Shown in pieces: positions 13,658 through 33,000 of a DNA stretch of 64,000 bases. Every line of letters begins with the position of its first letter. Position 1 is the first letter of the stretch. The notes beneath the pieces were generated by a model. It was not told the DNA's origin and did not search any database. It worked only from the letters and a program-made list of their open reading frames with translations. Location of the stretch: contig JACYXH010000710.1 in assembly GCA_026745465.1 (NCBI GenBank), positions 45,001-109,000 on the forward strand. Reading direction: 5' to 3'. The translations under genes were made by a program, and so were the position numbers. The DNA comes from Lota lota (Eukaryota > Chordata > Actinopteri > Gadiformes > Lotidae).

Positions 13658-14302
13658 CAAATATAATCAGAGACAGCCTAGCAACATAGCCAATGTGCAT
13701 CTGGTAATGGGGAATAAATATTCAGAGGGGCGGCTGGAGGGGGCCTCACAGGTGCATACATTAGCTGTGTTGAGGCAACGGGGGCCCTGGTGCTGCTGAT
13801 AAAGGGGGTGGATGTAGGAAAACACAACCCTTAGCAGGGCGTGAAGGAAAACAATCGGCCACGTTCCAGTTAAGACAACAGCAACACCGTTCAAAATGGT
13901 AAAGTATGGATTTTGTTTTCAATTAATATCAAATAATTCTCTCTGGCTCTCTCTCTCTGTGTCTCTGTCTCTCACACATGCGCGTACACACACACACACA
14001 AACATTGTGTTGATGTGTGCACCCTTGCATGTGTGTGTTTGTGTACTGTTAGATCCGTCACAATGTGAAGCTTGTTGTCCAGTAACGGTTGTGAACAAGC
14101 CGGTGAGGAGATTCGCCCAGCCCCTAACTACTCTGTACCAGACGCCTATCCCGCTTGCTCCGGCGCCCTACCCCTGGGCATAACCCTGGCCAGGACCGTG
14201 GCTACCGGCCGCGTCTGTATAGTAGCTCTCCTCTGGGATCCGTGCGCTTGGAAGTTTGCTGGGATTATTTAAGAGTTTGGAAAAACAACTCTAAGGATAT
14301 GT

Positions 14303-14421
14303 TTTATTTATGAGGACTAGGTAACCTCTCAGAATCACGATGTCAGATACAACTCCAGTCCAATTGATGTCCAAAGGAAGAAGATGTCGGGAAATGACAA
14401 AAAGGATTAAATTGTTTTATT
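14303..14421 (-). terminator. Candidate polyadenylation signals in the 3' LTR
   Basis: Two minus-strand AATAAA hexamers, at 14416-14421 and 14303-14308, lie 500-640 bases downstream of the TATA box. Either could end the R region. Which is used cannot be told from sequence. Confidence 0.5.
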
Positions 14422-15369
14422 GTATTTGCTTGCGGATTATAGGAGGGAACATTGCAAATTGCTAAAAAGTCCTTCGATATATAAAATCAAAAGAACGTAT
14501 AAAATAAACAAAAGTATACTTTCCAATAATAATTGACAATAAAAGAAAAAACAACGATCACACATGTTGCTTACTTGTGATGAGAAGCCGAACGAGTTCG
14601 TAGGGGCGCAGAAGGAGTAAAAACTCCTTCTACGTTTTGAGAAAAAACCTAATCAATTTCTTTCCTAATCGTCCCTTTTGCATGTATAAGTGAGCCTACA
14701 TAGCTGTCCCAGCTATGGGAGGAATCCTCTCCGGAGATTGAATAATACTAGGCTAGCTTCTAAAAACACATGTCTATCCGAGGTGTTCTGAGAATGTTCT
14801 ATCTCTTTTCGGTTTTCTGTTCCAATTCGTTCTATTCGTCTATCGGCTATTTTATTTCTTCCGGAGGTCCGGGTTGACGTCCTGCATGGAGTCCCCGTAG
14901 TAAGGATTCCTCCTCGTTCTGTTCATATGCAGGTTCTTTTATAGGACTTATAGTTCCTCCCTTTTCATGTCGTAATATTCCATTACACTTCTACTGACGC
15001 GTATAGTTCTTATCTCTCGGCTTCTAGGTACTTTTTCCTCTTGGCCCATCTGGCGTGATTACCACCATCTCCTGGGTTCTTTATGTATTTACCACCTGTT
15101 TTTATTATGGCTTTTTAATTACCGAGTGATTCGGTTTCCGAGAAAGCACCTAAAAAGATCCGAAAGTCACATTAGACCTGATGGATGAGCTTATGTTCCC
15201 AAGCACCATTACATGCCTGAGATATGCATTTCATGCTAGACATGCACTCATAGTATCATAAACCTGTTTCTTCATTGAATATGATCTTCCTAGTTCATAT
15301 CTCGTGTACAAAACAACCCATATCTGTTAACGCCAAATCTCATATCTAAGCCTCGTATTAGAGTACAAC

Positions 15370-15525
15370 ACAATACATCAGTGCGTAGAATATAAGACCA
15401 TACAGCAGTGCGTGAAGACAAAAGTTGATGTATCTCAGTGGTCAGGACAAACAGGAAGTGATATATATCAGTGTAGACAAACAAAAAGTAATATATCAGT
15501 GTTGAAGACAAAATGATATAAGGTA
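15370..15525 (-). promoter_or_regulatory. Degenerate repeats in U3, candidate enhancer
   Basis: Within U3, about 150 bases hold four or five degenerate copies of a unit containing ATATCAGTG followed by GACAAA-type sequence. The same array is at 32273-32428 in the other LTR. Repeats in U3 are often enhancer or transactivator-binding sites; here that is inference. Confidence 0.4.
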
Positions 15526-15813
15526 GCGCGGTTTACATACATCATGAGGCCTTGACGTTGTTACCAGTATAATGTGAACCCGTGTTTTCAAATGTATACA
15601 TAAGACAGTGCTCAACCTAGTAAGTGCCCTTATATAGTACACAAGTGTTCTTATAAAATCAGTTGTCGTTGTATCAGTGCTTATTGGCTAACATAGGATA
15701 TAACAGTAGATAGCAATCGACAATAACATCATCCCTTTTTGACTCATGTTATATTACTCATATCCACGTTTTTAGACACTGTCCGGGTTTCGATGAATCA
15801 ACCTTACTTGACA

Positions 15814-15823
15814 CCCCCTCCTT
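15814..15823 (-). other. Polypurine tract
   Basis: On the minus strand AAGGAGGGGG directly precedes the TG of the 3' LTR, the standard position for the plus-strand DNA primer used in reverse transcription. The last accessory ORF ends 38 bases upstream. Confidence 0.85.
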
Positions 15824-15861
15824 GATATCAGTGGAACCCAGGGACAGGAAGTCCACGTAGC

Positions 15862-16602
15862 TCAGCGAGAGGCCGGGGAATATCCGGAGGCAGAATCGAC
15901 CGCCGGAGCCCCGGTCAGGCCATTACGTCCAGCATGCGGACCAAGGGTGACGTCCGCAGGGGAAGGGGGACGTAGAAGAAGGGTGCGGAGCATAGAGGAG
16001 GAGACCTGGTGATCCCGAGGGGCAGGAGGATAGATGACATCCAAGGTGTCGAGGGAGGCCGATGGATCCCGGGAAACCAGCACGGGGGGTGATCTGGAAC
16101 GAGCATCACTGTTGTCCGAATTCCGCCGAGGCCGACGAGAGGAGCCGGAACGTGACCAATCGAAGCCCCGGGAGCGATGGGTACCCAGGCGGGTAGCCGA
16201 GGAATCCCAACCACAAAGAGCCAAGCCTTGGTGACCGCGGAGTCCCCGATAGGTGGTCCATTGGCCCCATCCACAGCCACAGCATCGCCACAGACGAGCC
16301 AGAGGATCGCGATAGGCAACGCTGTTATCAGGTTGAGGAAAATGGGGCACCAGGGCGTCGATCACTGGAGTTGCCGGGGGGGATCCTGGGCCCATGATGT
16401 GTCGGAGGCGTTCCTGGATCATGTTCTCAATGTCAGAATCGGGGAAGTGTCGTGGACGATACAATGGGGAAAAAAGGCCGTTACGCTGCCACGGCCCATA
16501 GGCGGGTAGGGGCCTAGGGTTAGGTGACGGAGGAAGAGAACTCAGCCAGTCAAGTACATCGTCCAACGCAGAGTCAGTATGAGCCATGAGTCCGGGAGGC
16601 AA
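15862..16602 (-). CDS. Retroviral accessory ORF, 246 aa, Cys/His and Arg-rich
   Basis: The last ORF before the 3' LTR; not recognised as a known family. Around residues 105-140 is a cluster (RCCGCGWGQW, then GLRGHQ and LCGW) of Cys and His that could bind zinc. It is followed by an Arg/Ser-rich basic stretch (about residues 150-175) that could serve nuclear import or RNA binding, and a Pro-rich tail. Its position 3' of env is where foamy and other complex retroviruses keep regulatory genes, so a regulatory role is plausible but unproven. A downstream in-frame ATG (residue 6) exists; I keep the first. It starts 123 bases after the end of the 301-aa ORF and must be translated from a spliced RNA. 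Confidence 0.7.
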   Translation of the reverse strand: MPPGLMAHTDSALDDVLDWLSSLPPSPNPRPLPAYGPWQRNGLFSPLYRPRHFPDSDIENMIQERLRHIMGPGSPPATPVIDALVPHFPQPDNSVAYRDPLARLWRCCGCGWGQWTTYRGLRGHQGLALCGWDSSATRLGTHRSRGFDWSRSGSSRRPRRNSDNSDARSRSPPVLVSRDPSASLDTLDVIYPPAPRDHQVSSSMLRTLLLRPPSPADVTLGPHAGRNGLTGAPAVDSASGYSPASR

Positions 16603-16725
16603 AAATACTTATAAAAAGATATAAAAAGTAAAAGGCGATAGGGTGAGGCCTGAGTGTCTACAAGTATTCGCCGTGTTCAGCGCCCTGTGATGTCTGCATA
16701 GAGGAGTTGTCCATCTTTATACCGT

Positions 16726-17631
16726 TTAGTCATACATATCCCACCCAGTGGGAGGGGCTACAGACAAGGCGTTGCCCCAGGAATCCAAAACAAGGAACTC
16801 GGAACGAAGTGGCGACGCCTCGGATGGTGATGACGAAAGGTCACCTAATGACACATCGTCCAGTGGATTTTTATCCATCTCTAACGTTGGGTCTGGGGGA
16901 GTGAGCGGTAGGGGGTAAGCAGAGACGGGGTTAGAATCGGGGAGACGGGGGGGGGAAGGTAACTGGGCGCCTTGTGCCGTTACCAAATGGGCAAGAGCCC
17001 TTTCCAACTTAGGGATTGCCGTCACCGAGAGCGGTGAGGACGGGGGAGAGGGTTTAGGAGGGGGCCTTGGAGAGGGAATGGGAGAGGATGTGGGAGATGG
17101 GATCGGGGAGACGTTGAGGCCCAACATTTCACTAAGAGTTTGGTCCCAATCTAGCATAGGAGAAGAGGGTTCGTCCGATACCCCAGAATCTGTGTGTGGC
17201 TCAAAAATGGGGATTTGGACAGTAGAGGAAAGACTGGCCTGGCCCGAAACCGAACGAACAGCAAAATACGTGCCATTCCCTAATCGAGCAACACTCGTAC
17301 CCGAGCCCTGGGCTCGCAACCAAACTTCAAGAAAAACTTGGTAATAATACCCATTCAGATACCGACGTACGCCCGAAGGGGCAATACTCGGAACTGTGGC
17401 ACTGGCGTCATTACGCCAAGAAATGGGGTGGGACGTTACAAGATATTGCAACGTGGACATTGGTAAGGCAGGAGGGGGGCCATAGACAGTAAAAATCCCG
17501 TTACCGGTGTAGAATCCGGCTTTAGTATTATAGCAATTACAGCAAACAATACTTTCTGCCATATCCCACAAGTAGGGAACATGCGTTGGACTGGCTTTAC
17601 AAATGCAACACTCGGCCAAACCCTGTAACAA
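16726..17631 (-). CDS. Retroviral accessory ORF, 301 aa, N-terminal Cys cluster and acidic tail
   Basis: Unrecognised. The N terminus has two Cys groups, CCIC at residues 8-11 and CCNC at 30-33, a likely zinc-binding pair. Residues about 165-205 are Pro/Ser-rich, and the C-terminal 80 residues are acidic with hydrophobic spacing (several D/E next to L, W, F), the layout of many transcriptional activation domains. Together with the position 3' of env this suggests a Tas/Bel1-like transactivator by analogy only; I see no direct sequence match. The Cys pattern (CxxC followed by ICxNC) also occurs in the 524-aa ORF between pol and env, so the two could share an origin. Confidence 0.72.
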   Translation of the reverse strand: MLQGLAECCICKASPTHVPYLWDMAESIVCCNCYNTKAGFYTGNGIFTVYGPPPALPMSTLQYLVTSHPISWRNDASATVPSIAPSGVRRYLNGYYYQVFLEVWLRAQGSGTSVARLGNGTYFAVRSVSGQASLSSTVQIPIFEPHTDSGVSDEPSSPMLDWDQTLSEMLGLNVSPIPSPTSSPIPSPRPPPKPSPPSSPLSVTAIPKLERALAHLVTAQGAQLPSPPRLPDSNPVSAYPLPLTPPDPTLEMDKNPLDDVSLGDLSSSPSEASPLRSEFLVLDSWGNALSVAPPTGWDMYD

Positions 17632-17714
17632 AAAAACATAAGTAAATATATGGATCAGATAAATATCTACTAATATAGTGCTAAGCAGGAAAGCAGGGAT
17701 GCGATTTGTACGGA
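17632..17714 (-). other. Short spacer between accessory ORFs
   Basis: Eighty-three bases with no frame of note. It likely contains a splice acceptor for the 301-aa ORF, but none stands out. Confidence 0.3.
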
Positions 17715-18434
17715 CTACTCGTACATTGGTGGTTCGTCATAAGGAGGCTCCATTGGTGGATAATAGACCGGAGGCATATTATTGACATTAAGCATGGACA
17801 TTTCTAATACCTCTGTCCTGCTGTTAGTGATCCCAGTATGTTGTACCCTTACTCGAGTGGCTCTTTGTAAGAAAAGGTCACAAACAATTAAGTACAATAT
17901 TTGGTCAATCGGCATAAGCATCTTGGCCCAAACTCCTGCTGAAACAGTGGCCCACCCTATGGCGCATAGTAAAACACCACACACGTCACTACAAACAGGG
18001 ACATCTAGGATTGGCAGAAGACGAAGGGCCCACATAACCGCACCATCGTTAACAGCCATTATCGCTAGGCAGTTGTATCGTAAGGCAGCGGGACTGAACA
18101 AAGGGGACATATGGATAAACGTTTGAACCACTTGACTAATGGTCCAGACCGAGATCATGAGGGCTTGAGCTTTCTGGGACGTAGTGTCAGAGGCATGCTG
18201 TATCCCTAAAATAAAAGTGATATATAGACCTAAGCAAAAGTCCAAAGGTCCTGTAACCATAATGCATACGTGCTGGGTAAGAGTAATGGATAAGGCAAAG
18301 ATCCGAAAGGGGTCACTCCAGGAACCCTGCATACAATAGCACATCCAGCACAGTAATTCATAATAAAGACCAACAATCTGTTGTATGCTTACGTTAGCCG
18401 GCCAAGTAGCATTAGGTGCCTCCGTTGGTTCCAT
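17715..18434 (-). CDS. Retroviral accessory multi-pass membrane protein with PPxY tail, 239 aa
   Basis: Unrecognised family. The first 25 residues hold two N-glycosylation sites (NAT, NVS). Five or six hydrophobic segments follow (about residues 45-65, 66-85, 93-113, 122-142, 150-172, 178-192), so it is a polytopic membrane protein. The C-terminal 25 residues are cytosolic-looking and Pro/Tyr-rich, with two PPxY motifs (PPVY and PPMY) plus PPYD. PPxY recruits NEDD4-type ubiquitin ligases and acts as a late domain in many retroviral Gags. I saw no PPxY in this virus's Gag, which suggests that the budding signal, or a trafficking or receptor-downregulating signal, sits on this protein instead. 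Retroviruses rarely encode polytopic proteins. It starts 241 bases after the env stop. Confidence 0.78.
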   Translation of the reverse strand: MEPTEAPNATWPANVSIQQIVGLYYELLCWMCYCMQGSWSDPFRIFALSITLTQHVCIMVTGPLDFCLGLYITFILGIQHASDTTSQKAQALMISVWTISQVVQTFIHMSPLFSPAALRYNCLAIMAVNDGAVMWALRLLPILDVPVCSDVCGVLLCAIGWATVSAGVWAKMLMPIDQILYLIVCDLFLQRATRVRVQHTGITNSRTEVLEMSMLNVNNMPPVYYPPMEPPYDEPPMYE

Positions 18435-18675
18435 GGTCTAACTGTAAGAGATTTGGCGTTTGTTAATATGAAGAGAGTCTTAAGACAGGCTCCGTAATGG
18501 TCTAACCTCCTATGTCGTAGCGTCCGTATGCAAGTGATTATATACAGCTAGAATCCACCTCCCTTTTGGGAGGGTGGAGCCTGGTTTGTCTCCTTCCCCA
18601 GCCGGGGTAGGGGTTTTTAAACATAGTCAGTTGTAAGAGTCAGTCTTGTTAGTCGTCTGGTGGATAATATTATCA

Positions 18676-21123
18676 TTATTGGTGCTCAGGGGTTTGTATC
18701 GGCGGCTTTTCTATATGGGCACCTACTCCAAATAAGCGTTGGAATGCGGCCATCGTTCCGGCCTTAAATAAGATAAAAAAGGTGAGAACAGCGATCGCTA
18801 CCAAGAAACACGTCAATATTATGGGCCATAGCATATGTAATAATTTTAATATAGTATTGACTATCCACTTCCCGATGGCCATAGCTCCTTCTTCGATGGC
18901 TCCTATAATTGTTCCGACCGTTTTTACCGTCACTAGCTTCACTACGAGACCTGCGCGTTCGATCCAGGTGCAATCGCGCATATTCTGTCCTTCCCCGCAT
19001 TGCTGCCAAGTTTCAGTGGGCCATCGGCAAGTACTATTGGTGTATATTCTATTGACTCCCACCCATTCATAGCCCTGGATTTCAGTTCCATTACAGAGAC
19101 TTTGACGAAATGCATGTCCTTCAACTAGTTGGAGCAAACCATGTCCAGTATATGGTAGATCGGTAGGAAGTAGATTCTGCCTTTGTGGGGTGGATTGGGC
19201 GTAGGAACATCCGCCATGGAGGGGTACAGCTTTGATCCATGTCCCCGTAACATTAACCCATGTGGCTCCTTGATAAGCACTTCCTACCATACCGCGGTAC
19301 CAACGGGTACATTGTTCCTTCCAGCCGGGGACTGTGTGACATGGTCTTCTGGCTAAGGCTATAACACATGTTGTGTTGGCAGCGTTACATTTCATTCTCC
19401 AAGGTTGAGGGGTAGCATATACGGTGGGTTGTGTGAGTCCTGGCCAGATGTCGCGGTCATGGGAATAGACAGTGGCAAGGAACTGGTACTGGACCCAGTA
19501 ATTAGTCGTTTCGTTCAGGCAGGGTATAACCCATGATACTACCTCATTTTCTTGAAAACCCCACCAGGTAACGTCAGAGGATCTCTGTAGGTGTCCTTCT
19601 TCCCATCCCTGCAGGGCCCCTTTTACTGTTTGAGAAGCATTAAGGACACTGCAATCATAGAACCAATTAGAGCGACCTAAGTTGATGTGCTGGTAAATAG
19701 GGCAGCGTGGTGAGTATCCTTTATTCACAAAAGTCGTTCCGTCCAGGTCTGTGATCATTCTTTTAACCGTACACCTATCTATCTTATCGAAATCTCCCGG
19801 TGGCACACTCCATAAATCCTGGGGGGTTGGTAGTTTCTGGACATTGAACGAGGTGACTTCCGTCTGAATGGGGACTCCCTGTGAATATTTTCGATCTCGC
19901 GTTCTTCGTCCCAAGATGGTGATAGCAGTGCTATAATAAGTAAGGCCTTGATACCAAATCCAGGGAAAGGAACTATTGAGCCATAATTCTGCCGCTGCTC
20001 CTCGTCCATTTGCTGACCCAAACATTATCTTCCTTCCAGCATAATTATATGAGCCTTTTTCTACATGAGAGTATACAATGTAGTTTTGCCCTCTACAAGG
20101 GGTGATCAGACTCCAATAACAGGGCAATAGCCGGTTTTTCATTTGGGCAGTACAGTGAACCGCCGTTCTAATTCGTTGGTCATATGTACGATTACTATGC
20201 CGGGTTAATGCGTCTAGAACAGCAGAGATGTTTGGAGCGTGGGTTAAGCGTTTCCTGGTGCGTCGTCGTCGAGTATTCGCTACCTGGGTTGGTGAGGTTC
20301 CAGGTTGGGGGGTAGAGGAGATATTACCTAAACGCTGAATAGCTTTGCGATATCTGTTGGCAATATCTTTATCAGAAGCGGGGCATTGTAAGTCGTAATC
20401 GCTCCATGAATCCCATACGGAGAAGAGACCATAACAGGCTACTGCTGCCTCCGTCGAGGGGTATTCTACATCGGAACGCCAGTAGCCATACGTGAAGGCT
20501 GGTGGGATGGGAATGCAACTCCAATTGCAATAGATCCTGGGCGGTGTGTCCACGATTTGCATCCATGTGCAGGCAGCTTGTTTGACTCGTAACTTGGTTA
20601 AATTTAACATGCGGATTTCTACCTCATTTTGGGTGATAGATAGTATCTCCACTAGAACTAACCCTGATTGGTTATAATAATGGTATTGTTTAGTTGTGCA
20701 ATTAGCCGACGAGTTGAGCATACATTGAGCAGTTTGAGGATCTACTCCTTGGGCCCGTGACCACCATTCCAATATATCTGCGGTGGAGTTGTAGGTGTCA
20801 TTGTTTTGGCTGGTTTGATTATCCCAGGCCATATTGAAAACCTGTTCTTCTGCCATCCAACATTTCATCTGGAATCCTTTCGTAGACTTGTAGTAGGCCG
20901 CCACATGAGATCGGGTCCAGGAGTCAACACCGCAAGCATAACAAATGATGGTCATAACAGCTAAGGCTATGAAGAGTAATATAGTAGTCTTATGTTTCGA
21001 AATCTTGTTGGGTTTTACTGGTTGTTCTTGATTGGGGTTCGGGGTTTTAGCAGCATCAGGGTGTAGCAACAAATGTCTTTCATGCAGGCCGTCGTCCGAC
21101 ATCCTTGCAAGTGAGACGTCCAA
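18676..21123 (-). CDS. env: Retroviral envelope glycoprotein, 815 aa
   Basis: Mediates receptor binding and membrane fusion. Residues about 46-65 form a hydrophobic segment after a 45-residue, largely polar N terminus, i.e. a leader or anchor of the foamy-virus type rather than a short cleaved signal. A polybasic furin-type site RRRRTRKR is at residues 285-292 (20248-20271). About 18 N-glycosylation sequons and many Cys are spread through both halves. A C-terminal transmembrane helix lies at about 764-786, followed by a 29-residue cytoplasmic tail without the dilysine retrieval signal of foamy viruses. The long C-terminal half (over 500 residues) is Trp-rich. The frame is fully open. It starts three bases after the stop of the 397-aa ORF. 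I cannot place the fold; a profile search would be decisive. Confidence 0.88.
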   Translation of the reverse strand: MDVSLARMSDDGLHERHLLLHPDAAKTPNPNQEQPVKPNKISKHKTTILLFIALAVMTIICYACGVDSWTRSHVAAYYKSTKGFQMKCWMAEEQVFNMAWDNQTSQNNDTYNSTADILEWWSRAQGVDPQTAQCMLNSSANCTTKQYHYYNQSGLVLVEILSITQNEVEIRMLNLTKLRVKQAACTWMQIVDTPPRIYCNWSCIPIPPAFTYGYWRSDVEYPSTEAAVACYGLFSVWDSWSDYDLQCPASDKDIANRYRKAIQRLGNISSTPQPGTSPTQVANTRRRRTRKRLTHAPNISAVLDALTRHSNRTYDQRIRTAVHCTAQMKNRLLPCYWSLITPCRGQNYIVYSHVEKGSYNYAGRKIMFGSANGRGAAAELWLNSSFPWIWYQGLTYYSTAITILGRRTRDRKYSQGVPIQTEVTSFNVQKLPTPQDLWSVPPGDFDKIDRCTVKRMITDLDGTTFVNKGYSPRCPIYQHINLGRSNWFYDCSVLNASQTVKGALQGWEEGHLQRSSDVTWWGFQENEVVSWVIPCLNETTNYWVQYQFLATVYSHDRDIWPGLTQPTVYATPQPWRMKCNAANTTCVIALARRPCHTVPGWKEQCTRWYRGMVGSAYQGATWVNVTGTWIKAVPLHGGCSYAQSTPQRQNLLPTDLPYTGHGLLQLVEGHAFRQSLCNGTEIQGYEWVGVNRIYTNSTCRWPTETWQQCGEGQNMRDCTWIERAGLVVKLVTVKTVGTIIGAIEEGAMAIGKWIVNTILKLLHMLWPIILTCFLVAIAVLTFFILFKAGTMAAFQRLFGVGAHIEKPPIQTPEHQ

Positions 21124-21126
21124 GCG

Positions 21127-22320
21127 TTATGAGTGCTGCGTCGGGGTGGCTCCTTCCCTTAATAACTCCTGCAATAGCTCCGGGTGGTGTAGGAGGGTGT
21201 GGTCTAAACCTTTCCAACCCCACCTCCAGGTCGCAATTCTAAGCCTGTCATGTACCGGCCGAGCACCCACGTAAAAGTTGTAAATCGGATGTCTACGGTT
21301 GGCAGGTATAGGATGGGTCTGTTCCAGGCATTGCATGATTTCCTGTCGTAAAGTGGGATAAAACTTGCGTATGTTGCCAGAGGTGCACATAGGTGGTTTC
21401 AATGTGAACTTCTCCGCCCATAGCATGGCAGCCAACCCGTGATAACAACTGATCGTGTGTCTCCAATCCGGCCCTGTTCCTTTGGCCAGGATCAAAGAGG
21501 CCCATAGAACATTGCAAGAGGCTGACCGTCCGTCCTTCCTTGTTCGGTCTAATTGAAGTTCTACTGTACGGGTCCATAATAAGCCCCAGCGTTCATGTAA
21601 TATGTCTGGGTCCATTCTTGGGCTTGGATCATGTATTGGGAGAAAAAGAGGCCGACAACAGTGGAAATCGAACTGGGATTCCTTAATATGGCCCGTATCC
21701 TTTACTCTTAAGGGTAAGGTTTGATTGAAAATCACTCTCTCTGAATTCCTTACTTTATCCTTGATGCAGTTCCTCATAAACGGATCCGTGGTCCAAATGG
21801 ACATTACCCCACACAATATTTCTATGTATAGCGGTTGGATAGGATCGGCATAATTTGGACCCCATCTTAGGGTAAACCTTATCCCTTCAAATAGCAAGTC
21901 TACGCTATTAATGATCCAGGGAAAGTCAAAAGGAATCCGTTGGACTGGTTGGGAACCTCCTTGTTTCCCTATCTGTTGTATGCGCCATCTCCCCAGGGTC
22001 ACAGGAGACATAATGCATTGCACGAAATTGTTTGGTATTGTATTCGTGAGATCCAGTGCTCTTTCCTGGGTTTCATTAGTACAATAATATGCTGCTGTTC
22101 CGCAGGCTTGTCTGTGGTAATCCCAATCTTTTGTGGGTTCGTCTAAGGGTACTTGCTCATATCGTAATGGTATTACAATATTACCTTGTTCGGTCCGTCG
22201 AGTTTTCTGTCTGGGTTTTAGTGGTCGGGTCTGTCTGTGTCGTCCTGCTGTGTCTAGATTTACTGTCTTTGAGGTCTCTTGTCTTTCCGCCATTTCATCC
22301 ATTTCATCCATTTCATCCAT
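21127..22320 (-). CDS. Unknown retroviral ORF between pol and env, 397 aa
   Basis: Not recognised. The N terminus is acidic with three Asp-Glu-Met repeats from a GATGAA-like microsatellite, then a basic stretch (about residues 28-43, RPLKPRQKTRR). The rest is globular-looking and Trp-rich with scattered Cys but no motif I can name, and no signal peptide or obvious transmembrane helix. It overlaps the end of the 524-aa ORF by 61 bases in another frame and ends three bases before env. Large ORFs in this position are not part of standard foamy, gamma or epsilon genomes; lentiviral genes found here are smaller. The frame is open, suggesting selection or youth. The start may be any of several close Met codons. 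Confidence 0.68.
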   Translation of the reverse strand: MDEMDEMDEMAERQETSKTVNLDTAGRHRQTRPLKPRQKTRRTEQGNIVIPLRYEQVPLDEPTKDWDYHRQACGTAAYYCTNETQERALDLTNTIPNNFVQCIMSPVTLGRWRIQQIGKQGGSQPVQRIPFDFPWIINSVDLLFEGIRFTLRWGPNYADPIQPLYIEILCGVMSIWTTDPFMRNCIKDKVRNSERVIFNQTLPLRVKDTGHIKESQFDFHCCRPLFLPIHDPSPRMDPDILHERWGLLWTRTVELQLDRTRKDGRSASCNVLWASLILAKGTGPDWRHTISCYHGLAAMLWAEKFTLKPPMCTSGNIRKFYPTLRQEIMQCLEQTHPIPANRRHPIYNFYVGARPVHDRLRIATWRWGWKGLDHTLLHHPELLQELLREGATPTQHS

Positions 22321-23834
22321 CTCTGCTGTGTAGTCGGAGGTGGTATTGGTACGTTCTCACTAGATGGTATCTCGTCAGGAGAAACACGTCTTAGTACTAC
22401 GACTGTAGCGCCCACAGACTGGATATTTTTGTAGGGCACGATTACCATCTGTACTATAAGCTCCACCTCTAGGTGGTCCTCCGGTTTCCAGGGTTGACTT
22501 GTTCTATTGGCTATTGTGCCCGGCCGCTGCAAAACCCCTTCTCGTCGCCAATCCTCAGGGGTTACTTTGAATGGCTTTCTTTTCAGTATTGCCATAGATT
22601 CATGACTTCCCCATCCATCTAATGTAGTGGCTAAGTATTTGAGATGACTTGTGGAAACTCCTCTTTCTTTGGATATTTGTAAGGGGGTAACAGGAATATT
22701 GGGATCTCGGATGACTTCATTAATTAACCGAGCCCAGTCCGTATTTTCCCACGGACCAGACCACCCTGCCCGTATAGCCCTTTCTTGTTGATCCTCGGGC
22801 AGTTGTTCCATACTGGCTAATTGGAGGTATTGGGCAGGCTCACGGTACACCCGAAATCCTTTCTTGTGGTGGGTAGCTCCCATTGGTGGTTGTCTTTCCT
22901 CACAAAACGTCTGATCCTCCGGCCAACAATGTCGAATTGCTTCTTCTAAGCGTGAAAGGTTGTCCTTCATACAAGAGGCCGGGGGAGCAGTCGGGGCTGC
23001 ACGTTCAAAGGATTGGAACATTTGCTCTTCTGACTGACCGTGGCAACTCGTATCCTCCGTTTGCTCTTGAGCACTATCTGAACAGGAGACGAGGATTGCA
23101 GAGGGTACTACAGTCCCTAATGGCCTGGGTATATCATAGAGATTTTTATCTCCATCTCCTGTATCTGTATGGGAAAGGTTATTATCCTCGGATAATGGCG
23201 GCAAAATGGGTGCAAACCCAACTTTTTGCTCTGGAGTCATTTCTTCCAGTGGTTCAAAAAACCGCCTCACCTCCCATCCTTCTGCTGGTGGTAGACTACG
23301 TAAACGTTCGTCCTCCATCATCTCTATACACCAGTCACAATCCTTGATGTTTTCGCCATCCCATTCACATCTGCATCTCGAGTTCCGTGACAGAGGGTCA
23401 TCTAGGCTCCATTGAGTGTATACCATAGTCCTTGGGAGTATTTTAATGCGACAGTTTCCACAAATAATTGCATCCATTACTTTTACCGGGGCTGGCATTA
23501 AGTTCTGCATCTCTTCTTTCTTTGGTTTAAAAGCCATGGGTCTCAGCTTCCCTGGGCCCTCGTATAGGACGGACAATCCCGTGTCCTTACCACAGAGGAT
23601 ACATGTACTCCCTATTTTCCGCCACACAAACAATTCTAAAAATCCCGTCAGGTAGCCTCGACGGGCATAATGTAGTTTGGACAGGGCTCTTCCAGCCCAT
23701 ATTCCTTCAATTCCTCTTCGTAGGATTACTGCTGCTTTCACATTGGCCAATTTGATGTATGGTATTTCGGTTAATCTTGTACGTCTATCATCATTATGTA
23801 ATGATGAGGTTGTCTTCCCTATCTGTTTTGCCAT
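22260..23834 (-). CDS. Unknown retroviral ORF between pol and env, 524 aa, zinc-binding N terminus
   Basis: Not recognised. Residues 78-81 (CILC) and 125-128 (CGNC) form a possible four-Cys zinc site, and CRC at 154-156 with CDWC at 166-169 a possible second. A long acidic, low-complexity middle (about 190-290) is followed by a Trp- and charge-rich C-terminal half. The last residues repeat WMK three times because they are encoded by the same microsatellite that gives the next ORF its Met-Asp-Glu repeats. It begins 18 bases after the pol stop and overlaps the next ORF. The CxxC ... ICxNC layout resembles the 301-aa ORF 3' of env. A regulatory or nucleic-acid-binding role is possible but is inference. 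Confidence 0.7.
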   Translation of the reverse strand: MAKQIGKTTSSLHNDDRRTRLTEIPYIKLANVKAAVILRRGIEGIWAGRALSKLHYARRGYLTGFLELFVWRKIGSTCILCGKDTGLSVLYEGPGKLRPMAFKPKKEEMQNLMPAPVKVMDAIICGNCRIKILPRTMVYTQWSLDDPLSRNSRCRCEWDGENIKDCDWCIEMMEDERLRSLPPAEGWEVRRFFEPLEEMTPEQKVGFAPILPPLSEDNNLSHTDTGDGDKNLYDIPRPLGTVVPSAILVSCSDSAQEQTEDTSCHGQSEEQMFQSFERAAPTAPPASCMKDNLSRLEEAIRHCWPEDQTFCEERQPPMGATHHKKGFRVYREPAQYLQLASMEQLPEDQQERAIRAGWSGPWENTDWARLINEVIRDPNIPVTPLQISKERGVSTSHLKYLATTLDGWGSHESMAILKRKPFKVTPEDWRREGVLQRPGTIANRTSQPWKPEDHLEVELIVQMVIVPYKNIQSVGATVVVLRRVSPDEIPSSENVPIPPPTTQQRWMKWMKWMKWRKDKRPQRQ

Positions 23835-23852
23835 CGTGATTCCTAGTCGTCC

Positions 23853-26738
23853 TTAGTCTGAAATCGGTTTGAGTTGGCTCACTCCTTGTATCCCTTTCTT
23901 ATTTAACAACACTGTGTTACTATCGATGATCCTTGTCACAATATCTTGTATTTCGTATTTAGGTTTTACAGCTGTTCCGGAGGGATGATCTCTTGCCTTC
24001 ACCCAGACTCGTTGTCCTACAGAAAAAGGTATTTTTGGCTGGTCCACCTCTGTTTTGAGCTTTGGAAGCCGTCCCACCTTTTCTGAGGAGAAGGGGCGTT
24101 GATTTAGCTCCTGGGAAGGGGAGGGTCTCTGAGCACGATGTCGGTCGTTCAATGACTGTCCGATTTCCACCATTTTAGTACTCCATAACTTAGTGTTTTC
24201 ATTTTTTCCTATCCATAATTTAATTAGCCCTATTGTTCTTTCTACTACCCCGTTGGCTTGAGGAGTATATGGGGGCGAATAGATCCTTTCCACTCCGTGC
24301 TGCTGACACCATTGATCCACTTGTTTGTTACGAAAATGGGAGCCGTTATCGGTTCGTAATTCCTTGGGAACTCCCAAATCACTGCAAACTTGTATCAACA
24401 TATTGACTACACTGTTGCCGTTGGCTGCTCTAACTGCCCTGGCCGTCACATATCCTGACATTGAATCTACTAATACAATTATGTATTTCTCACCTTTTGT
24501 TCCCTTAATACCCATAGGGCCAGCTACATCCATACATACTGAACCCCAAGGTATGGTACTTTTTATGGTGAGACCATCTACTCTTTGTCCTCTTCGTCCG
24601 GCATTGTATTGTCCACACTTCACACAGTTTTTTAGGACCTGCCGGATCTTCTTATCTGTGATACTGAGCCTACTTTCCACCAATTCCCTCCGTGTTGGTT
24701 TGGCTCCGGCATGGCCCAATCCCTCATGGACGGCCAGCACGACCTTTTCCACGGACTTGTCTGGGACTACTTTCCCCAACGGGGTTTCTTCCCAATCCTC
24801 GATATCGACGAACACAACTTTCCTTAATTGAACGTAGCGATCGACGTTTTGGTTCCCTTGCCAGTGTTCCCCTTCCTTGGTGTGGGCCTTTTGATGGATC
24901 ACCTCTAAATCTAGCGTGTGTCTCATCTGTGCTATCTTGGTCCACAACTCGTAGTGCGCTACTTGTTTTCCTTTCGCTCCTTCAAACCCATTTTCTTCCC
25001 AGATTGTGAGGTCCTCTTTTAGCGCCTGTACACAGTAATGACTATCAGTGATAATTCTAGCCCTTTTTATATGTCGTTTCTCTAGTTCGAGAAGTCCTTC
25101 TAGAATAGCTGTTACTTCTCCCGCTTGAGCACTACCTTCTACCTTTCCTCTCTGTCGCCAGATTTCTCTGTCTTTATGATATAGGATATATCCCCAATAG
25201 GCTTGATGATCCTGTGCCTTCTTGGATCCATCCGTATACAATGTCCACTCATATTGTCCTATTTCACTAGGCTCTTGTTTCTCCGGGCTCTGGGATGTTT
25301 GTTGTATTGTACCAATTTCCAAATCGGGGTCTAGAAGAATGTCCTCCCATCTTCCCCACCTGGTATTAGTAGCTTTGGTACTTTCTATAGTCCCTTTACG
25401 TAAGAACCTATGAACGTTACTTTGTGTGGTTATCTTGATTTGTTGTCCCTGTGCTAGGTCTTTCAGTGAGCTCCAATAGCGTGCTATCACAGCTAGTTCT
25501 TTTTCTTCAGCTGGATACTTCTGCTCTACTGTAGTTAGCACATAACTCCATAGGGTTACTAGTTGTTTTCCTTCGTTGCATACGGTTACTACGGCGTCAG
25601 TGTCTTCTAGGTTGATTTCTACCACTAACCGTGTCGTAGGATCTCTTGGTTGCAACCGTACTGCCTCTCTGATTGCTTTTTTAAGTATTTCGAGGTTGTT
25701 TTGGTCCGTTGCCGTCCATTGGAAATCTGTCTCGTCCTTTTTCCGTAGACATGCATATAGGGGCTTGGCATATTTCTGGTAGCTTGGCACATGATCTCGT
25801 ACGTAATTACATAGGCCTAGTATTTGTTGTAATTCTCTGATGGTTGTTGGAGGAGTTATTTTCTCAATTTTACTTCTATATCCATCTGATAAACCTAAAT
25901 CCGTGGAGATTTGGAAGCCTAAATAATTTACTTGAAACTTGCCGAATTGACATTTGGTTAAATTCAATTTCAACCCTGCGTCCGATAAACGTTGTATTAC
26001 TTTCTCCAAAAGCTCCAGGTGTTCCTCTTCTGTATCATTGGCAATAAACACATCATCTATATAGATAGTGACTGGGAGTCCTTCCAACACTTCCATTACC
26101 GCGGACTGGAACACGTTAGGAGAATTTTTGTAGCCTTGGGGCAATCTTTGCCACACATATGCCTTTCCTCGGTGCGTAAATACTGTTTTAGCTTGAGATG
26201 GTCTTGCCAATGGTAGGGAAAAGAATCCATTCGCTAAATCTATACAGGATTTAAATTTTCTAACCTTCAGTGTTTTTAAGGCTCCTTGTGGGTTTATTAG
26301 ACTTGCTTTATTCGCCACTGTTCTTCTATTTAAGGCTTTAAAATTGATCACGGGTCTCCATGAGCCATCAGGCTTTTTTACGGCTTGTATGGGACTATTT
26401 GTCATAGGATTGGGTTCTTCTCTTATTATTCCTAATGCCGTTAATTCGTTTACGATCAAATCCATTTCTTTTATGGCATCCGGGTGTAAGGGATATTGGC
26501 GCACGGCCGGGTGTACTCCTCCTATAATAGTGTGAGTATAATGTGCTGATAACGTTCCACAATCATTTTTAAAGTGGCTGATTTTCGCCTTTTTTATAAT
26601 GTCCCCTAATTTTCCTTTCCCCTGCTCAGTGAAATCGCTCTCCTTGACTTTTTCTTCTATGGTGGTGGGTACATTAATGGTTTTATACCATGATCGCGTT
26701 ACAATAGGGTCATCAGGTGTAAGTCCAATTCTAAGCAC
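23853..26738 (-). CDS. pol: Pol: reverse transcriptase, RNase H and integrase, 961 aa
   Basis: Copies viral RNA into DNA and inserts it. RT spans about residues 60-340 with the DLANGF motif (catalytic Asp 167) and YIDD at 226-229. RNase H spans about 495-640 with Asp 503 (TDGS), Glu 541, Asp 565 (TDSHY) and Asp 633. Integrase starts near 665: zinc-binding His 671, His 676, Cys 705, Cys 708; catalytic Asp 737, Asp 797 and Glu 833 with 35 residues between the last two; a C-terminal SH3-like segment follows from about 905. All catalytic residues are present and the frame is open. DLANGF and the long RNase H are foamy-like. Protease is in a separate upstream frame that overlaps by 40 bases. Expression by a -1 shift or from its own ATG/spliced RNA is undecided. 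Confidence 0.96.
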   Translation of the reverse strand: MLRIGLTPDDPIVTRSWYKTINVPTTIEEKVKESDFTEQGKGKLGDIIKKAKISHFKNDCGTLSAHYTHTIIGGVHPAVRQYPLHPDAIKEMDLIVNELTALGIIREEPNPMTNSPIQAVKKPDGSWRPVINFKALNRRTVANKASLINPQGALKTLKVRKFKSCIDLANGFFSLPLARPSQAKTVFTHRGKAYVWQRLPQGYKNSPNVFQSAVMEVLEGLPVTIYIDDVFIANDTEEEHLELLEKVIQRLSDAGLKLNLTKCQFGKFQVNYLGFQISTDLGLSDGYRSKIEKITPPTTIRELQQILGLCNYVRDHVPSYQKYAKPLYACLRKKDETDFQWTATDQNNLEILKKAIREAVRLQPRDPTTRLVVEINLEDTDAVVTVCNEGKQLVTLWSYVLTTVEQKYPAEEKELAVIARYWSSLKDLAQGQQIKITTQSNVHRFLRKGTIESTKATNTRWGRWEDILLDPDLEIGTIQQTSQSPEKQEPSEIGQYEWTLYTDGSKKAQDHQAYWGYILYHKDREIWRQRGKVEGSAQAGEVTAILEGLLELEKRHIKRARIITDSHYCVQALKEDLTIWEENGFEGAKGKQVAHYELWTKIAQMRHTLDLEVIHQKAHTKEGEHWQGNQNVDRYVQLRKVVFVDIEDWEETPLGKVVPDKSVEKVVLAVHEGLGHAGAKPTRRELVESRLSITDKKIRQVLKNCVKCGQYNAGRRGQRVDGLTIKSTIPWGSVCMDVAGPMGIKGTKGEKYIIVLVDSMSGYVTARAVRAANGNSVVNMLIQVCSDLGVPKELRTDNGSHFRNKQVDQWCQQHGVERIYSPPYTPQANGVVERTIGLIKLWIGKNENTKLWSTKMVEIGQSLNDRHRAQRPSPSQELNQRPFSSEKVGRLPKLKTEVDQPKIPFSVGQRVWVKARDHPSGTAVKPKYEIQDIVTRIIDSNTVLLNKKGIQGVSQLKPISD

Positions 26739-27058
26739 TTTAGTTGAAGATTTAATAATCTTTTCTTCATGGGACGTCTTCTCCTCTTTGGTTTCTGTAA
26801 TTCCTGTAAATCCTCTATGGTAACTAAATCATTAGGGCCTATGAGCCATATTACTCCTTTCCAGATGCCACATGGCATAGTTCTTGTTTCACCATTGGCT
26901 AATTGTACTTTTAGGTGTCCGATTATTTTCAGGTTTCTACGGGTCATTGACACCTCTGCTCCGGTGTCTACTAGGTAAGGTTTTCCATCTACTATAGTAT
27001 AGATATTATTCCCTTCCCAATACGCACCGTCTATCGTGACCCGTACCTGTGGTTCCAT
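26699..27058 (-). CDS. pro: Retroviral aspartic protease, 119 aa
   Basis: Cleaves the viral polyproteins. The catalytic signature VDTGAE is at residues 30-35, with a flap-like GIWKG region near 85. The length is close to a standard retroviral protease monomer plus a basic C-terminal extension (KRRRRP). The ATG shares its A with the gag stop (TGATGG at 27056-27060), and the frame is -1 relative to gag, so either termination-reinitiation or a -1 shift could link them. I see no canonical slippery heptamer at the junction. It overlaps pol by 40 bases, again a -1 relation. A stand-alone protease frame is unlike foamy viruses, where it is the start of Pol. Confidence 0.88.
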   Translation of the reverse strand: MEPQVRVTIDGAYWEGNNIYTIVDGKPYLVDTGAEVSMTRRNLKIIGHLKVQLANGETRTMPCGIWKGVIWLIGPNDLVTIEDLQELQKPKRRRRPMKKRLLNLQLKCLELDLHLMTLL

Positions 27059-30540: not shown

Positions 30541-30929
30541 ATCGAGTCGTTTCCCTCTCTGGGCCTCCCTTAGCGCATCGGGCAGGGGAGAGAGGTAGAC
30601 TATTTGGTTATGCTCTCGTCAGTACGGTCTTCCGTTCTACGAGTACCTATTCTTTCCTTGTCGTTTTCTCGTTCGACTTCGGAAGTCCCGGTCTGTTTTC
30701 TTTTCATAGAATTCAGCACCGGCGGTGGTGTCTGCTACCCACAAAACCTCCCACCTAGTTTCGAGGCTGCTCGCTACTGCATGTCCTCACGGGTCGTTCA
30801 CTGTCCAGCCGTGCACTTCACTCGGGTCCAGTAAAGAGCGCCTCCATCACGGTACACATCTTTCTGGATTCTTCCGAATTCGTTCTCGCAGCTGGGGGTT
30901 CCTGAGCACAACGATTCTTCTTCGTAGTT
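30541..30929 (-). other. Retroviral leader between primer site and gag
   Basis: About 390 bases with no conserved frame, expected to contain the packaging signal. No strong splice donor stands out here; a GTAAGC donor candidate lies inside the LTR R/U5 part at 31472-31477, as foamy viruses have their major donor in R. That assignment is weak. Confidence 0.5.
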
Positions 30930-30947
30930 GCCCCACGTTGGGCGCCA
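30930..30947 (-). other. Primer binding site, tRNA-Lys1,2 type
   Basis: On the minus strand TGGCGCCCAACGTGGGGC, a perfect 18-base match to the 3' end complement of tRNA-Lys1,2, starts two bases after the 5' LTR. This primer is used by foamy viruses, Mason-Pfizer-type and visna-type viruses. Confidence 0.95.
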
Positions 30948-30949
30948 AG

Positions 30950-32716
30950 TGTTAGATCCGTCACAATGTGAAGCTTGTTGTCCAGTAACGGTTGTGAACA
31001 AGCCGGTGAGGAGATTCGCCCAGCCCCTAACTACTCTGTACCAGACGCCTATCCCGCTTGCTCCGGCGCCCTACCCCTGGGCATAACCCTGGCCAGGACC
31101 GTGGCTACCGGCCGCGTCTGTATAGTAGCTCTCCTCTGGGATCCGTGCGCTTGGAAGTTTGCTGGGATTATTTAAGAGTTTGGAAAAACAACTCTAAGGA
31201 TATGTTTTATTTATGAGGACTAGGTAACCTCTCAGAATCACGATGTCAGATACAGCTCCAGTCCAATTGATGTCCAAAGGAAGAAGATGTCGGGAAATGA
31301 CAAAAAGGATTAAATTGTTTTATTGTATTTGCTTGCGGATTATAGGAGGGAACATTGCAAATTGCTAAAAAGTCCTTCGATATATAAAATCAAAAGAACG
31401 TATAAAATAAACAAAAGTATACTTTCCAATAATAATTGACAATAAAAGAAAAAACAACGATCACACATGTTGCTTACTTGTGATGAGAAGCCGAACGAGT
31501 TCGTAGGGGCGCAGAAGGAGTAAAAACTCCTTCTACGTTTTGAGAAAAAACCTAATCAATTTCTTTCCTAATCGTCCCTTTTGCATGTATAAGTGAGCCT
31601 ACATAGCTGTCCCAGCTATGGGAGGAATCCTCTCCGGAGATTGAATAATACTAGGCTAGCTTCTAAAAACACATGTCTATCCGAGGTGTTCTGAGAATGT
31701 TCTATCTCTTTTCGGTTTTCTGTTCCAATTCGTTCTATTCGTCTATCGGCTATTTTATTTCTTCCGGAGGTCCGGGTTGACGTCCTGCATGGAGTCCCCG
31801 TAGTAAGGATTCCTCCTCGTTCTGTTCATATGCAGGTTCTTTTATAGGACTTATAGTTCCTCCCTTTTCATGTCGTAATATTCCATTACACTTCTACTGA
31901 CGCGTATAGTTCTTATCTCTCGGCTTCTAGGTACTTTTTCCTCTTGGCCCATCTGGCGTGATTACCACCATCTCCTGGGTTCTTTATGTATTTACCACCT
32001 GTTTTTATTATGGCTTTTTAATTACCGAGTGATTCGGTTTCCGAGAAAGCACCTAAAAAGATCCGAAAGTCACATTAGACCTGATGGATGAGCTTATGTT
32101 CCCAAGCACCATTACATGCCTGAGATATGCATTTCATGCTAGACATGCACTCATAGTATCATAAACCTGTTTCTTCATTGAATATGATCTTCCTAGTTCA
32201 TATCTCGTGTACAAAACAACCCATATCCGTTAACGCCAAATCTCATATCTAAGCCTCGTATTAGAGTACAACACAATACATCAGTGCGTAGATTATAAGA
32301 CCATACAGCAGTGCGTGAAGACAAAAGTTGATATATCTCAGTGGTCAGGACAAACAGGAAGTGATATATATCAGTGTAGACAAACAAAAAGTAATATATC
32401 AGTGTTGAAGACAAAATGATATAAGGTAGCGCGGTTTACATACATCATGAGGCCTTGACGTTGTTACCAGTATAATGTGAACCCGTGTTTTCAAATGTAT
32501 ACATAAGACAGTGCTCAACCTAGTAAGTGTCCTTATATAGTACACAAGTGTTCTTATAAAATCAGTTGTCGTTGTATCAGTGCTTATTGGCTAACATAGG
32601 ATATAACAGTAGATATCAATCGACAATAACATCATCCCTTTTTGACTCATGTTATATTACTCATATCCACGTTTTTAGACACTGTCCGGGTTTCGATGAA
32701 TCAACCTTACTTGACA
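30950..32716 (-). repeat. 5' LTR of the retrovirus (1,767 bp)
   Basis: Direct repeat of 14047-15813. Contains minus-strand TATAAAAG at 31839-31846, U3 repeats at 32273-32428 and AATAAA at 31319-31324. Drives transcription leftwards through the provirus. Confidence 0.97.
31839..31846 (-). promoter_or_regulatory. LTR TATA box
   Basis: TATAAAAG on the minus strand, 870 bases from the outer LTR edge. Transcription should start about 25-30 bases further left, near 31812. The same box is at 14936-14943 in the 3' LTR. Confidence 0.65.
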
Positions 32717-33000
32717 AGGTGGGGCTGGGTTCTTCCTGAAGTCCACAACCATCTCCACTGTCTGTAGAGCGTTCCGTGTCTCTGTCTCTGTCCGCTCTGT
32801 AGAGTTGGAAGCCTTCCAGCTCTAGCGCAGAGTCCGGTATTAATCCACAGAGCCACGTCTCCGTGAAGCACAAAACAGTAGATGCAGAAAAGTCCCTGTT
32901 TCCCCCCAACAGCAGTTGTAATTCTTCCAGTTTGTTGGGCAGTGAACGCACGTTAGAGAAATATGGCCGGTAACGGTGTGCGTGGTCCTCGCTTTAAACA
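32717..33000 (-). mobile_element. Broken LINE (non-LTR retrotransposon) fragment
   Basis: On the minus strand the frame reads NVRSLPNKLEEL and LCFTETWL with IPDS and GF..YRADR, typical of the APE endonuclease start of L2/CR1/Rex-type ORF2. It then jumps to EMVVDFRKNPAP-like sequence in another frame, which belongs to the reverse transcriptase part, so the element carries an internal deletion. It is cut at 32717 by the retroviral LTR. Confidence 0.75.

What the first reader, a model, noticed from the sequence alone, without database searches (positions are those of the whole stretch)
14047..32716. An 18.7-kb, apparently intact, complex foamy-like endogenous retrovirus
Seen: nine open frames, matched 1,767-bp LTRs, perfect primer site and polypurine tract, all Pol catalytic residues. 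Known: most retroviruses are 7-13 kb; foamy-like endogenous viruses exist in teleosts. Inference: this copy belongs to or near that group but carries five non-standard genes and is among the larger retroviral genomes. It is the strongest candidate here for an undescribed system.
Basis: partly seen in the sequence, partly recalled or inferred. Interest (0 to 1): 0.9.

Follow-up and report, generated by a model that had tools for sequence, protein, structure and literature searches.

The report
Giant foamy-like fish endogenous retrovirus
This is one of many recent copies, in what is evidently a fish genome, of an already described group of giant foamy-like retroviruses; this copy is not fully intact, but its five extra genes are real and its Gag protein may hold a hidden macrodomain-like module.

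Summary
The element at 14047-32716 is real, on the minus strand: paired 1,767-bp LTRs (6 differences), tRNA-Lys-type primer site, polypurine tract, nine open frames. It is not an undescribed system. RT places it in the ray-finned-fish foamy-like clade (98/96); size, primer site and gene order match the FLERVs of Aiewsakun & Katzourakis 2017 (proposed 'Gigantospumavirus').

It is not intact: protease and RT lie in different frames, but in one frame in 14 of 18 copies of this genome and in 5 relatives of the same clade, so nine frames are eight genes. It has no target-site duplication.

New here: 29 gag places (whole or partial) in the same genome; all five extra ORFs, against three diverged copies, show dN/dS 0.12-0.39, so they are genuine genes. 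Gag residues 372-535 look macro-like, with degenerate ligand loops and dN/dS about 0.1. They score just under the Pfam cut-off; a small alignment beats 200 of 200 shuffles against a mixed macro profile, but single sequences do not, and structure prediction failed. I saw no foamy-like Gag macro domain in the papers listed or read. Function is inferred: structural or host-facing, probably not a hydrolase.

The parts
30950..32716 (-). 5' LTR, 1,767 bp
   Evidence: TATA-like at LTR base 871 and AATAAA at 958, 1393 and 1506 among other matches (consensus matches only)
30930..30947 (-). primer binding site, tRNA-Lys type
   Evidence: tRNA identity recalled; same type stated for AciFLERV/AliFLERV in PMC5512871
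27058..30540 (-). gag, 1,160 aa, open; no CCHC knuckle
   Evidence: relative P0060
28936..29427 (-). macro-like segment, Gag residues 372-535
   Evidence: Pfam; hhalign; dN/dS 0.09-0.12; against: single-sequence rows
26699..27058 (-). protease part of pol; its ATG overlaps the gag stop (TGATG); out of frame with RT in this copy
23853..26828 (-). RT-RNase H-integrase part of pol (open frame)
22260..23834 (-). ORF-A, 524 aa, cysteine-rich N part; in the acc3 position
   Evidence: dN/dS 0.12-0.13; 12-13 of 13 Cys kept in 3 copies
21127..22320 (-). ORF-B, 397 aa; in the acc4 position
   Evidence: dN/dS 0.16-0.24
18676..21102 (-). env, 808 aa; N-terminal hydrophobic segment, furin-type basic run at 278, C-terminal hydrophobic span, 18 N-glycosylation sequons
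   Evidence: dN/dS 0.11-0.12
17715..18434 (-). ORF-C, 239 aa, hydrophobic stretches, PPxY motifs in the C-terminal tail
   Evidence: dN/dS 0.15-0.18
16726..17622 (-). ORF-D, 298 aa if it begins at an acceptor-like site; CCxC...CCxC and proline-rich/acidic C half
   Evidence: (one of 8 acceptor-like sites of a crude scan without chance control); dN/dS 0.21-0.39
15862..16587 (-). ORF-E, 241 aa; one zinc-finger-like CxxC...H stretch; in the acc2 position
   Evidence: dN/dS 0.16-0.17
15814..15823 (-). polypurine tract AAGGAGGGGG
14047..15813 (-). 3' LTR, 1,767 bp

Best explanation
[quoted passage not shown] Likely working of the family: transcription from the LTR; priming from tRNA-Lys; Gag and Pol made as separate proteins, Pol from its own ATG overlapping the gag stop; Env and five accessory proteins from spliced or internally started RNAs. 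Shown: sequence anatomy, RT placement, purifying selection on gag, env and the accessory genes (pol was not measured), near-identical LTR pairs and sister copies. Inferred: expression; ORF-D as a transactivator-like nuclear protein (Cys-rich head, proline-rich/acidic tail, in the bel1 position), ORF-E as a zinc-finger protein, ORF-C as a membrane protein that recruits WW-domain ubiquitin ligases through PPxY. Gag probably carries a conserved macro-like domain between a fast-evolving N-terminal part and the capsid-like part; with its ligand loops lost it is more likely a structural or protein/RNA-binding module than an ADP-ribose hydrolase. This particular copy cannot make an ordinary Pol, because PR and RT are out of frame.
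For: Pol: 300 bits to simian foamy PR-RT-RH against 129 for Ty3, 113 for MLV-type and about 71 for HIV. 14 relatives with 65-84% RT identity, 9 of them from named fish; RT tree of 38 rows: clade of these and the window 98/96, simian foamy next (84/77), MLV-type apart (99/96). Size, PBS and gene order match AciFLERV. Sister copies: 46 Gag matches, which I group into 29 places, 8 of them full length at 99-100% including this one. LTR pairs with 0-6 substitutions in 5 of 5 sister copies that could be paired (9 fetched). dN/dS against 3 diverged copies: A 0.12-0.13, B 0.16-0.24, env 0.11-0.12, C 0.15-0.18, D 0.21-0.39, E 0.16-0.17; Gag N-term 0.40-0.51, macro-like 0.09-0.12, capsid-like part 0.045-0.052. 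Pol frame split. gag/pol TGATG junction.
Against: No published FLERV sequence was at hand, so homology of ORFs A-E to acc1-4 rests on position and size only. ORF-C and ORF-D are not alike by BLASTP (E 1.0), whereas acc1a and acc1b of AciFLERV are paralogues, so the 3' gene set may not be the same. The foamy + fish node is only 84/77 and P0020 has a long branch. No foamy Gag or Env family appears among the Pfam hits. dN/dS values carry no significance test. For the macro-like segment: below the Pfam cut-off (17-21 bits against 22); in whole Gag another family (FlgI, E 0.0033) ranks above Macro (0.0084); single sequences score 19.6 and 23.7, no better than the best shuffle (24.1); bacterial-only profiles fail; no confident model (pLDDT 49 and 39). 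No RNA data.
Confidence: 0.88

Rival explanations
1. An undescribed kind of complex retrovirus outside the known foamy-like fish group.
For: 18.7 kb, slightly larger than the 17.4-17.5 kb reported; ORF-D unlike ORF-C and ORF-E (C against E was not compared).
Against: RT clade 98/96 with fish proteins, including one of Larimichthys crocea, a species listed by the FLERV paper; same gene order and PBS type.
Confidence: 0.06
2. The accessory ORFs are chance open frames or mis-joined cellular sequence.
For: No Pfam hit up to E 10 for any of the five, no NCBIfam hit.
Against: All five recur in the same order in 3 of 3 diverged copies examined, some with a stop or a split frame, with dN/dS 0.12-0.39.
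Confidence: 0.01
3. The Gag 372-535 segment is not macro-related; the match is chance or another alpha/beta fold.
For: Below the Pfam cut-off; FlgI ranks above Macro in whole Gag. PDB sequence searches give no macro chain: whole Gag PCSK9 prodomain E 0.046, segment a flavoprotein E 0.001 and then PCSK9 0.0046. AlphaFold2 models poor, no macro chain among the 50 VIA rows shown. YmdB-family profile gave 8.4, under the shuffle mean of 13.5. Single sequences 19.6 and 23.7 do not exceed the best shuffle, 24.1. Two pieces of a broken older copy gave no Macro hit.
Against: Macro was the best Pfam hit in 4 of 4 unbroken segments, E 3e-4 to 5e-3, and in whole P0060 (0.056). hhalign of the small alignment against 11 fish and bacterial macro domains aligns 138 columns, score 32.5, against a maximum of 24.1 in 200 column shuffles; these windows rank first of 308 (most control windows were single sequences, a weaker control). 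The PCSK9 match covers only about 48 residues and falls when P0060 is added (segment 0.0046 to 0.047; whole Gag 0.046 to 0.44), as does the flavoprotein (0.001 to 2).
Confidence: 0.25
4. PR and RT are joined by programmed ribosomal frameshifting, so pol is not broken.
For: The two frames overlap (26699-26828).
Against: 14 of 18 copies in the genome and 5 relatives have one frame. A small assembly error cannot be excluded.
Confidence: 0.05
5. The missing target-site duplication reflects assembly joins between near-identical copies rather than recombination in the genome.
For: Only 1 of 5 sister copies with both ends (C459, CTAT) has a clear duplication; two LTR pairs differ by 24-25 gap columns; on one contig two proviruses appear to share an LTR; several of the contigs are short.
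Against: The same pattern is expected from real recombination between copies, and the window is rich in minisatellites.
Confidence: 0.4

Closest known systems
AciFLERV / AliFLERV, ray-finned-fish foamy-like endogenous retroviruses ('Gigantospumavirus', PMC5512871)
   Same: Foamy-like Pol, tRNA-Lys PBS, about 17.4 kb, 8 genes in the order gag, pol, two accessory genes, env, three accessory genes (AciFLERV); young LTR pairs
   Different: 18.67 kb; ORFs A, B, D and E longer than acc3, acc4, acc1b and acc2; ORF-C and ORF-D show no paralogy; no domain was reported in AciFLERV's accessory ORFs, and the passages read mention none for Gag
ERV-F.1-Xeve-chr-15, swordtail endogenous foamy virus (PMC12642411)
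   Same: 17 kb, gag-pol-env plus at least three extra ORFs, one with a transmembrane domain, LTR pair alike, recent insertion
   Different: That copy has a 6-bp target-site duplication and a C3-gene fragment; this one has no duplication, and a host fragment was not looked for
Simian foamy viruses
   Same: Pol similarity (300 bits); tRNA-Lys PBS, Pol with its own start and no CCHC in Gag (features of foamy viruses recalled)
   Different: About 10 kb, two bel genes; no foamy Gag or Env family hit here
Viral macrodomains (coronavirus, alphavirus; recalled) and macro-domain ORFs in epsilon-like fish ERVs (one sentence in PMC4977317, citing Basta 2009; passages)
   Same: Macro-related domain in an animal virus
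   Different: Here it would be embedded in Gag, with degenerate ligand loops, in a foamy-like element

Membership tests
Ray-finned-fish FLERV / 'Gigantospumavirus' | RT in the fish foamy-like clade | tested here: met
   98/96; published FLERV sequences themselves not held
Ray-finned-fish FLERV / 'Gigantospumavirus' | extraordinarily large genome, about 17 kb | tested here: met
   18,670 bp
Ray-finned-fish FLERV / 'Gigantospumavirus' | acc3/acc4 between pol and env, acc1/acc2 after env | tested here: inconclusive
   ORFs in those positions under selection; sequence homology to acc1-4 not testable
Ray-finned-fish FLERV / 'Gigantospumavirus' | tRNA-Lys primer site | tested here: met
   tRNA identity recalled
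AciFLERV lineage | acc1a and acc1b paralogues | tested here: not met
   ORF-C against ORF-D BLASTP E 1.0; said by the authors to be lineage-specific
Foamy viruses proper (Spumaretrovirinae genera) | foamy Gag and Env families (that Pfam holds them is recalled) | tested here: not met
   none among the Pfam hits up to E 10
Foamy viruses proper (Spumaretrovirinae genera) | Pol expressed separately from Gag, own start | tested here: inconclusive
   ATG overlaps gag stop; RNA not available
Foamy viruses proper (Spumaretrovirinae genera) | internal promoter for accessory genes | tested here: inconclusive
   TATA-like site at 18544 upstream of ORF-C, one of three in 16600-21200; no chance control
Pfam Macro domain (PF01661) | score at or above the curated cut-off of 22 bits | tested here: not met
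   16.5 bits whole Gag, 20.3 window segment, 21.2, 20.7 and 17.2 in relatives
Pfam Macro domain (PF01661) | full-domain profile similarity | tested here: inconclusive
   small alignment: 138 columns, above 200 of 200 shuffles, fish-only profile 34.2; but bacterial-only 18.0, single sequences 19.6 and 23.7, YmdB family 8.4
Pfam Macro domain (PF01661) | ADP-ribose loop motifs (NAAN, glycine loops; recalled) | tested here: not met
   replaced in the hhalign alignment; the early Gly-Asp and the T-GG...IIH stretch are kept

The most novel reading that the evidence does not exclude
Giant fish foamy-like retroviruses carry inside Gag a macrodomain captured from a host PARP- or macroH2A-like gene, now degenerate in its ligand loops but under strong purifying selection. 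It would be the first macrodomain described, as far as my searches show, as part of a retroviral Gag, used for particle assembly or for blocking host ADP-ribosylation signalling.
Probability: 0.4. Interest if true: 0.75.

Novelty: new member of a known kind. Interest (0 to 1): 0.5.

Why it matters
It gives a multi-copy population of young giant foamy-like proviruses in one genome. The accessory genes of this group, annotated in 2017 on reconstructed sequences, can here be shown to be under selection as proteins. A macro-like domain would add retroviral Gag to the virus proteins that carry macrodomains and would raise a testable question about ADP-ribosylation as an antiretroviral defence in fish.

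Tried and rejected
Rejected: accessory ORFs as cellular or chance sequence. Rejected: ORF-A and ORF-D as paralogues because both have CxxC pairs. Weakened: PCSK9-prodomain-like fold for the Gag segment.

Led nowhere: full-length Gag protein search, 0 hits; IMG/VR scans with Pol, Gag and Env, no relative; NCBIfam, only a weak FlgI-type hit for Gag (E 0.061); single-sequence and two-sequence AlphaFold2 models, too poor, with no macro chain among the 50 VIA rows shown for the first (absence there is not evidence); YmdB-family profile against Gag, negative (score 8.4; 100 shuffles reached 28.5). The macro claim therefore rests on the broader profile chosen after that negative result; its six fish members came from a family search of the host genome made for this purpose. 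With that profile only the small alignment, not the single sequences, exceeds the shuffles. A central polypurine-tract-like site at 24869-24878 (1 mismatch) was not tested against chance.

Dropped rows: the RT tree used 34 of 43 database proteins that matched the RT query over at least 215 columns, plus the window and three PDB segments; nine rows beyond P0040 and all shorter matches were left out. PR/RT frame: 20 of 30 Gag loci were examined, two lacked one of the pieces. LTR pairs: 9 copies were fetched, 5 could be paired; in the others my stretch cut the 3' LTR or the U3 was too diverged. dN/dS used 3 diverged copies only, without a significance test; pol was not measured.
Full report
OBSERVATION. 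The element is there, on the minus strand. LTRs at 14047-15813 and 30950-32716 are 1,767 bp with 6 mismatches. The primer site TGGCGCCCAACGTGGGGC sits two bases inside the 5' LTR, and AAGGAGGGGG abuts the 3' LTR. Nine long frames run gag, protease, RT-RH-IN, A, B, env, C, D, E. Pfam finds RT (5.9e-30), RNase H (8e-19) and the integrase core (6.9e-17).

NOT INTACT. Protease and RT are in different frames in this copy. Five relatives of the fish clade (P0001, P0002, P0004, P0006, and P0007 from the named fish Zoarces viviparus) carry PR and RT in one frame; P0007 lacks part of integrase, and P0003 begins inside PR. Of 20 Gag loci of the same genome examined (30 held), 18 had both pieces and 14 of these had them in one frame; this copy and three others did not. 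So the nine frames are eight genes, one of them frameshifted here; a small assembly error is possible. There is no target-site duplication (0 of 4 bases): the left flank is a CA/TG-rich stretch; at the right flank a stretch that I read from memory as a LINE endonuclease fragment (Pfam found nothing up to E 0.01) stops at the LTR edge.

WHAT IT IS. The best PDB relatives of Pol are simian foamy PR-RT-RH chains (300 bits), then Ty3 (129), MLV-type (113) and HIV (about 71). A protein search gave 59 relatives (only the 7,998 candidates sharing most words were scored), the closest being fish proteins and unnamed ones like them. In an RT tree of 38 rows the window sits with 14 such rows (98/96; 9 of the 14 from named fish), then P0020 (94/95) and the simian foamy viruses (84/77), away from two MLV-type rows (99/96) and 18 other retroelement rows (100/99). 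Aiewsakun & Katzourakis 2017 (PMC5512871: passages, sections 7, 10 and 23) described ray-finned-fish FLERVs with inferred ancestral lengths of 17,409 and 17,490 nt. AciFLERV has a tRNA-Lys primer site and eight ORFs: gag, pol, acc3 (465 aa), acc4 (334), env, acc1a (253), acc1b (251), acc2 (234). Here the accessory ORFs are 524, 397, 239, 298 (from the acceptor-like site) and 241 aa in the same positions. They proposed 'Gigantospumavirus'; in my one search for that word only their paper appears. A review (PMC6431247, passages) repeats 'up to 17 kb', and a 2025 preprint (PMC12642411, passages and section 8) reports a 17-kb, recently inserted one in swordtails. A zebrafish ERV survey (PMC8672886, passages) added nothing on this point.

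THE POPULATION. The host genome held here has 575 Mb in 867 contigs and no name. A Gag search gave 46 matches (40 of 73 candidates scored, so a lower bound), which I group into 29 places, whole or partial: 8 full-length at 99-100% including this one, three full-length at 85-90%, others partial, and an older lineage on C373 (50-53% in the N-terminal part, 72-79% beyond). In five sister copies with both LTRs measurable, the pairs differ by 0, 0, 1, 5 and 6 substitutions. One of the five (C459, CTAT) has a 4-bp duplication; two pairs differ also by 24-25 gap columns; on C787 two proviruses appear to share an LTR. This points to recent spread with much recombination, or assembly joins between near-identical copies. 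In the diverged copies the U3 part of the LTR is only 66-86% alike, while the rest is 90.6-95%.

THE EXTRA GENES ARE REAL. In three diverged copies (C179, C526, C59) all five accessory ORFs and env are found in order. dN/dS against this copy: A 0.12-0.13, B 0.16-0.24, env 0.11-0.12, C 0.15-0.18, D 0.21-0.39, E 0.16-0.17 (no significance test). Each of these three copies has some stop or split frame. Features: ORF-A has 13 cysteines in its first 328 residues, 12-13 kept. ORF-C has hydrophobic stretches and a tail with PPxY motifs; counting this copy, the first is kept in 4 of 4, the second in 2 of 4. ORF-D has an acceptor-like site at 17622 (one of 8 in a crude scan) and keeps 6 of 6 cysteines. 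ORF-E keeps 4 of 4 cysteines around a finger-like CxxC...H. None of the five hits a Pfam or NCBIfam family up to E 10. Functions given in the best explanation are inference from these features and from position.

THE GAG DOMAIN. In whole Gag Pfam Macro is weak (E 0.0084) and FlgI ranks above it (0.0033); in the segment alone Macro is first (5.7e-4). Three unbroken relatives give 3e-4, 4.2e-4 and 5.1e-3, Macro first each time; all are under the cut-off of 22 bits. P0060, a separate relative (49% over residues 372-540), is among them. Two separate pieces of a broken older copy gave no Macro hit. PDB sequence searches found no macro chain. Against a profile of 11 macro domains (6 from this fish genome, 5 bacterial) hhalign aligned the small Gag alignment over 138 columns with score 32.5 (probability 47%, E 1.9e-4); 200 column shuffles reached at most 24.1. 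These windows ranked first among 308 windows of this element's proteins and of 12 other retroelement proteins, mostly single sequences; the fish-only profile gave 34.2, the bacterial-only one 18.0; this window's sequence alone gave 19.6 and P0060 alone 23.7, not above the best shuffle. An earlier, narrower YmdB-family profile gave nothing (8.4). AlphaFold2 models were poor (pLDDT 49 and 39) and none of the 50 VIA rows shown is a macro chain. In the hhalign alignment the Gly-Asp pair and the T-GG...IIH stretch are kept, while the NAAN and glycine loops (recalled as the ligand loops) are replaced. dN/dS is 0.09-0.12 here, 0.045-0.052 in the following capsid-like part and 0.40-0.51 in the N-terminal part. 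I give about 0.75 that this is a macro-fold domain (0.8 before I weighed the single-sequence scores), and less for any function.

IN PRINT? Searches for macro domain or macrodomain with foamy, Gag, fish or endogenous retrovirus (mostly listings seen, and only the best of 182, 15 and 59 papers) showed no paper on a macro domain in a foamy-like Gag. One review sentence mentions macro-domain ORFs in epsilon-like fish ERVs (PMC4977317, passages). A survey of NAD/ADP-ribose systems in viruses names retroviruses only for 2H domains in the passages found (PMC9503650). The library lacks most subscription papers.

VERDICT. A new member of a described group with some damage, not a new system; raised in interest by a sister-copy population, genes shown to be under selection, and a probable macro-like domain in Gag.

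Noticed in passing
window 33312-64000: Dense minisatellite arrays (81 of the 93 tandem-repeat rows start here), including TTAGGG/CCCTAA-like stretches near 44-45 kb; looks subtelomeric.
   Followed up: no
window 32717-32993: Stretch that reads like a LINE endonuclease fragment (from memory; no Pfam hit), cut at the LTR edge; I saw no continuation by eye in the left flank.
   Followed up: partly
host contig C787 (L048, L067, L070, L076): Two proviruses appear to share an LTR: a polypurine tract lies directly upstream of the 5' LTR, and a second gag start lies 16.9 kb upstream.
   Followed up: partly
Gag residues 1-360 (window 29461-30540): dN/dS 0.40-0.51, about four times that of the macro-like segment (0.09-0.12); may be a host-interaction surface.
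   Followed up: no
window 43001-44000: Almost G-free, C-rich stretch (GC skew -0.97).
   Followed up: no
host contig C765 (L040-L042): Cluster of host macro-domain matches within about 24 kb, PARP9/14-like by guess.
   Followed up: no
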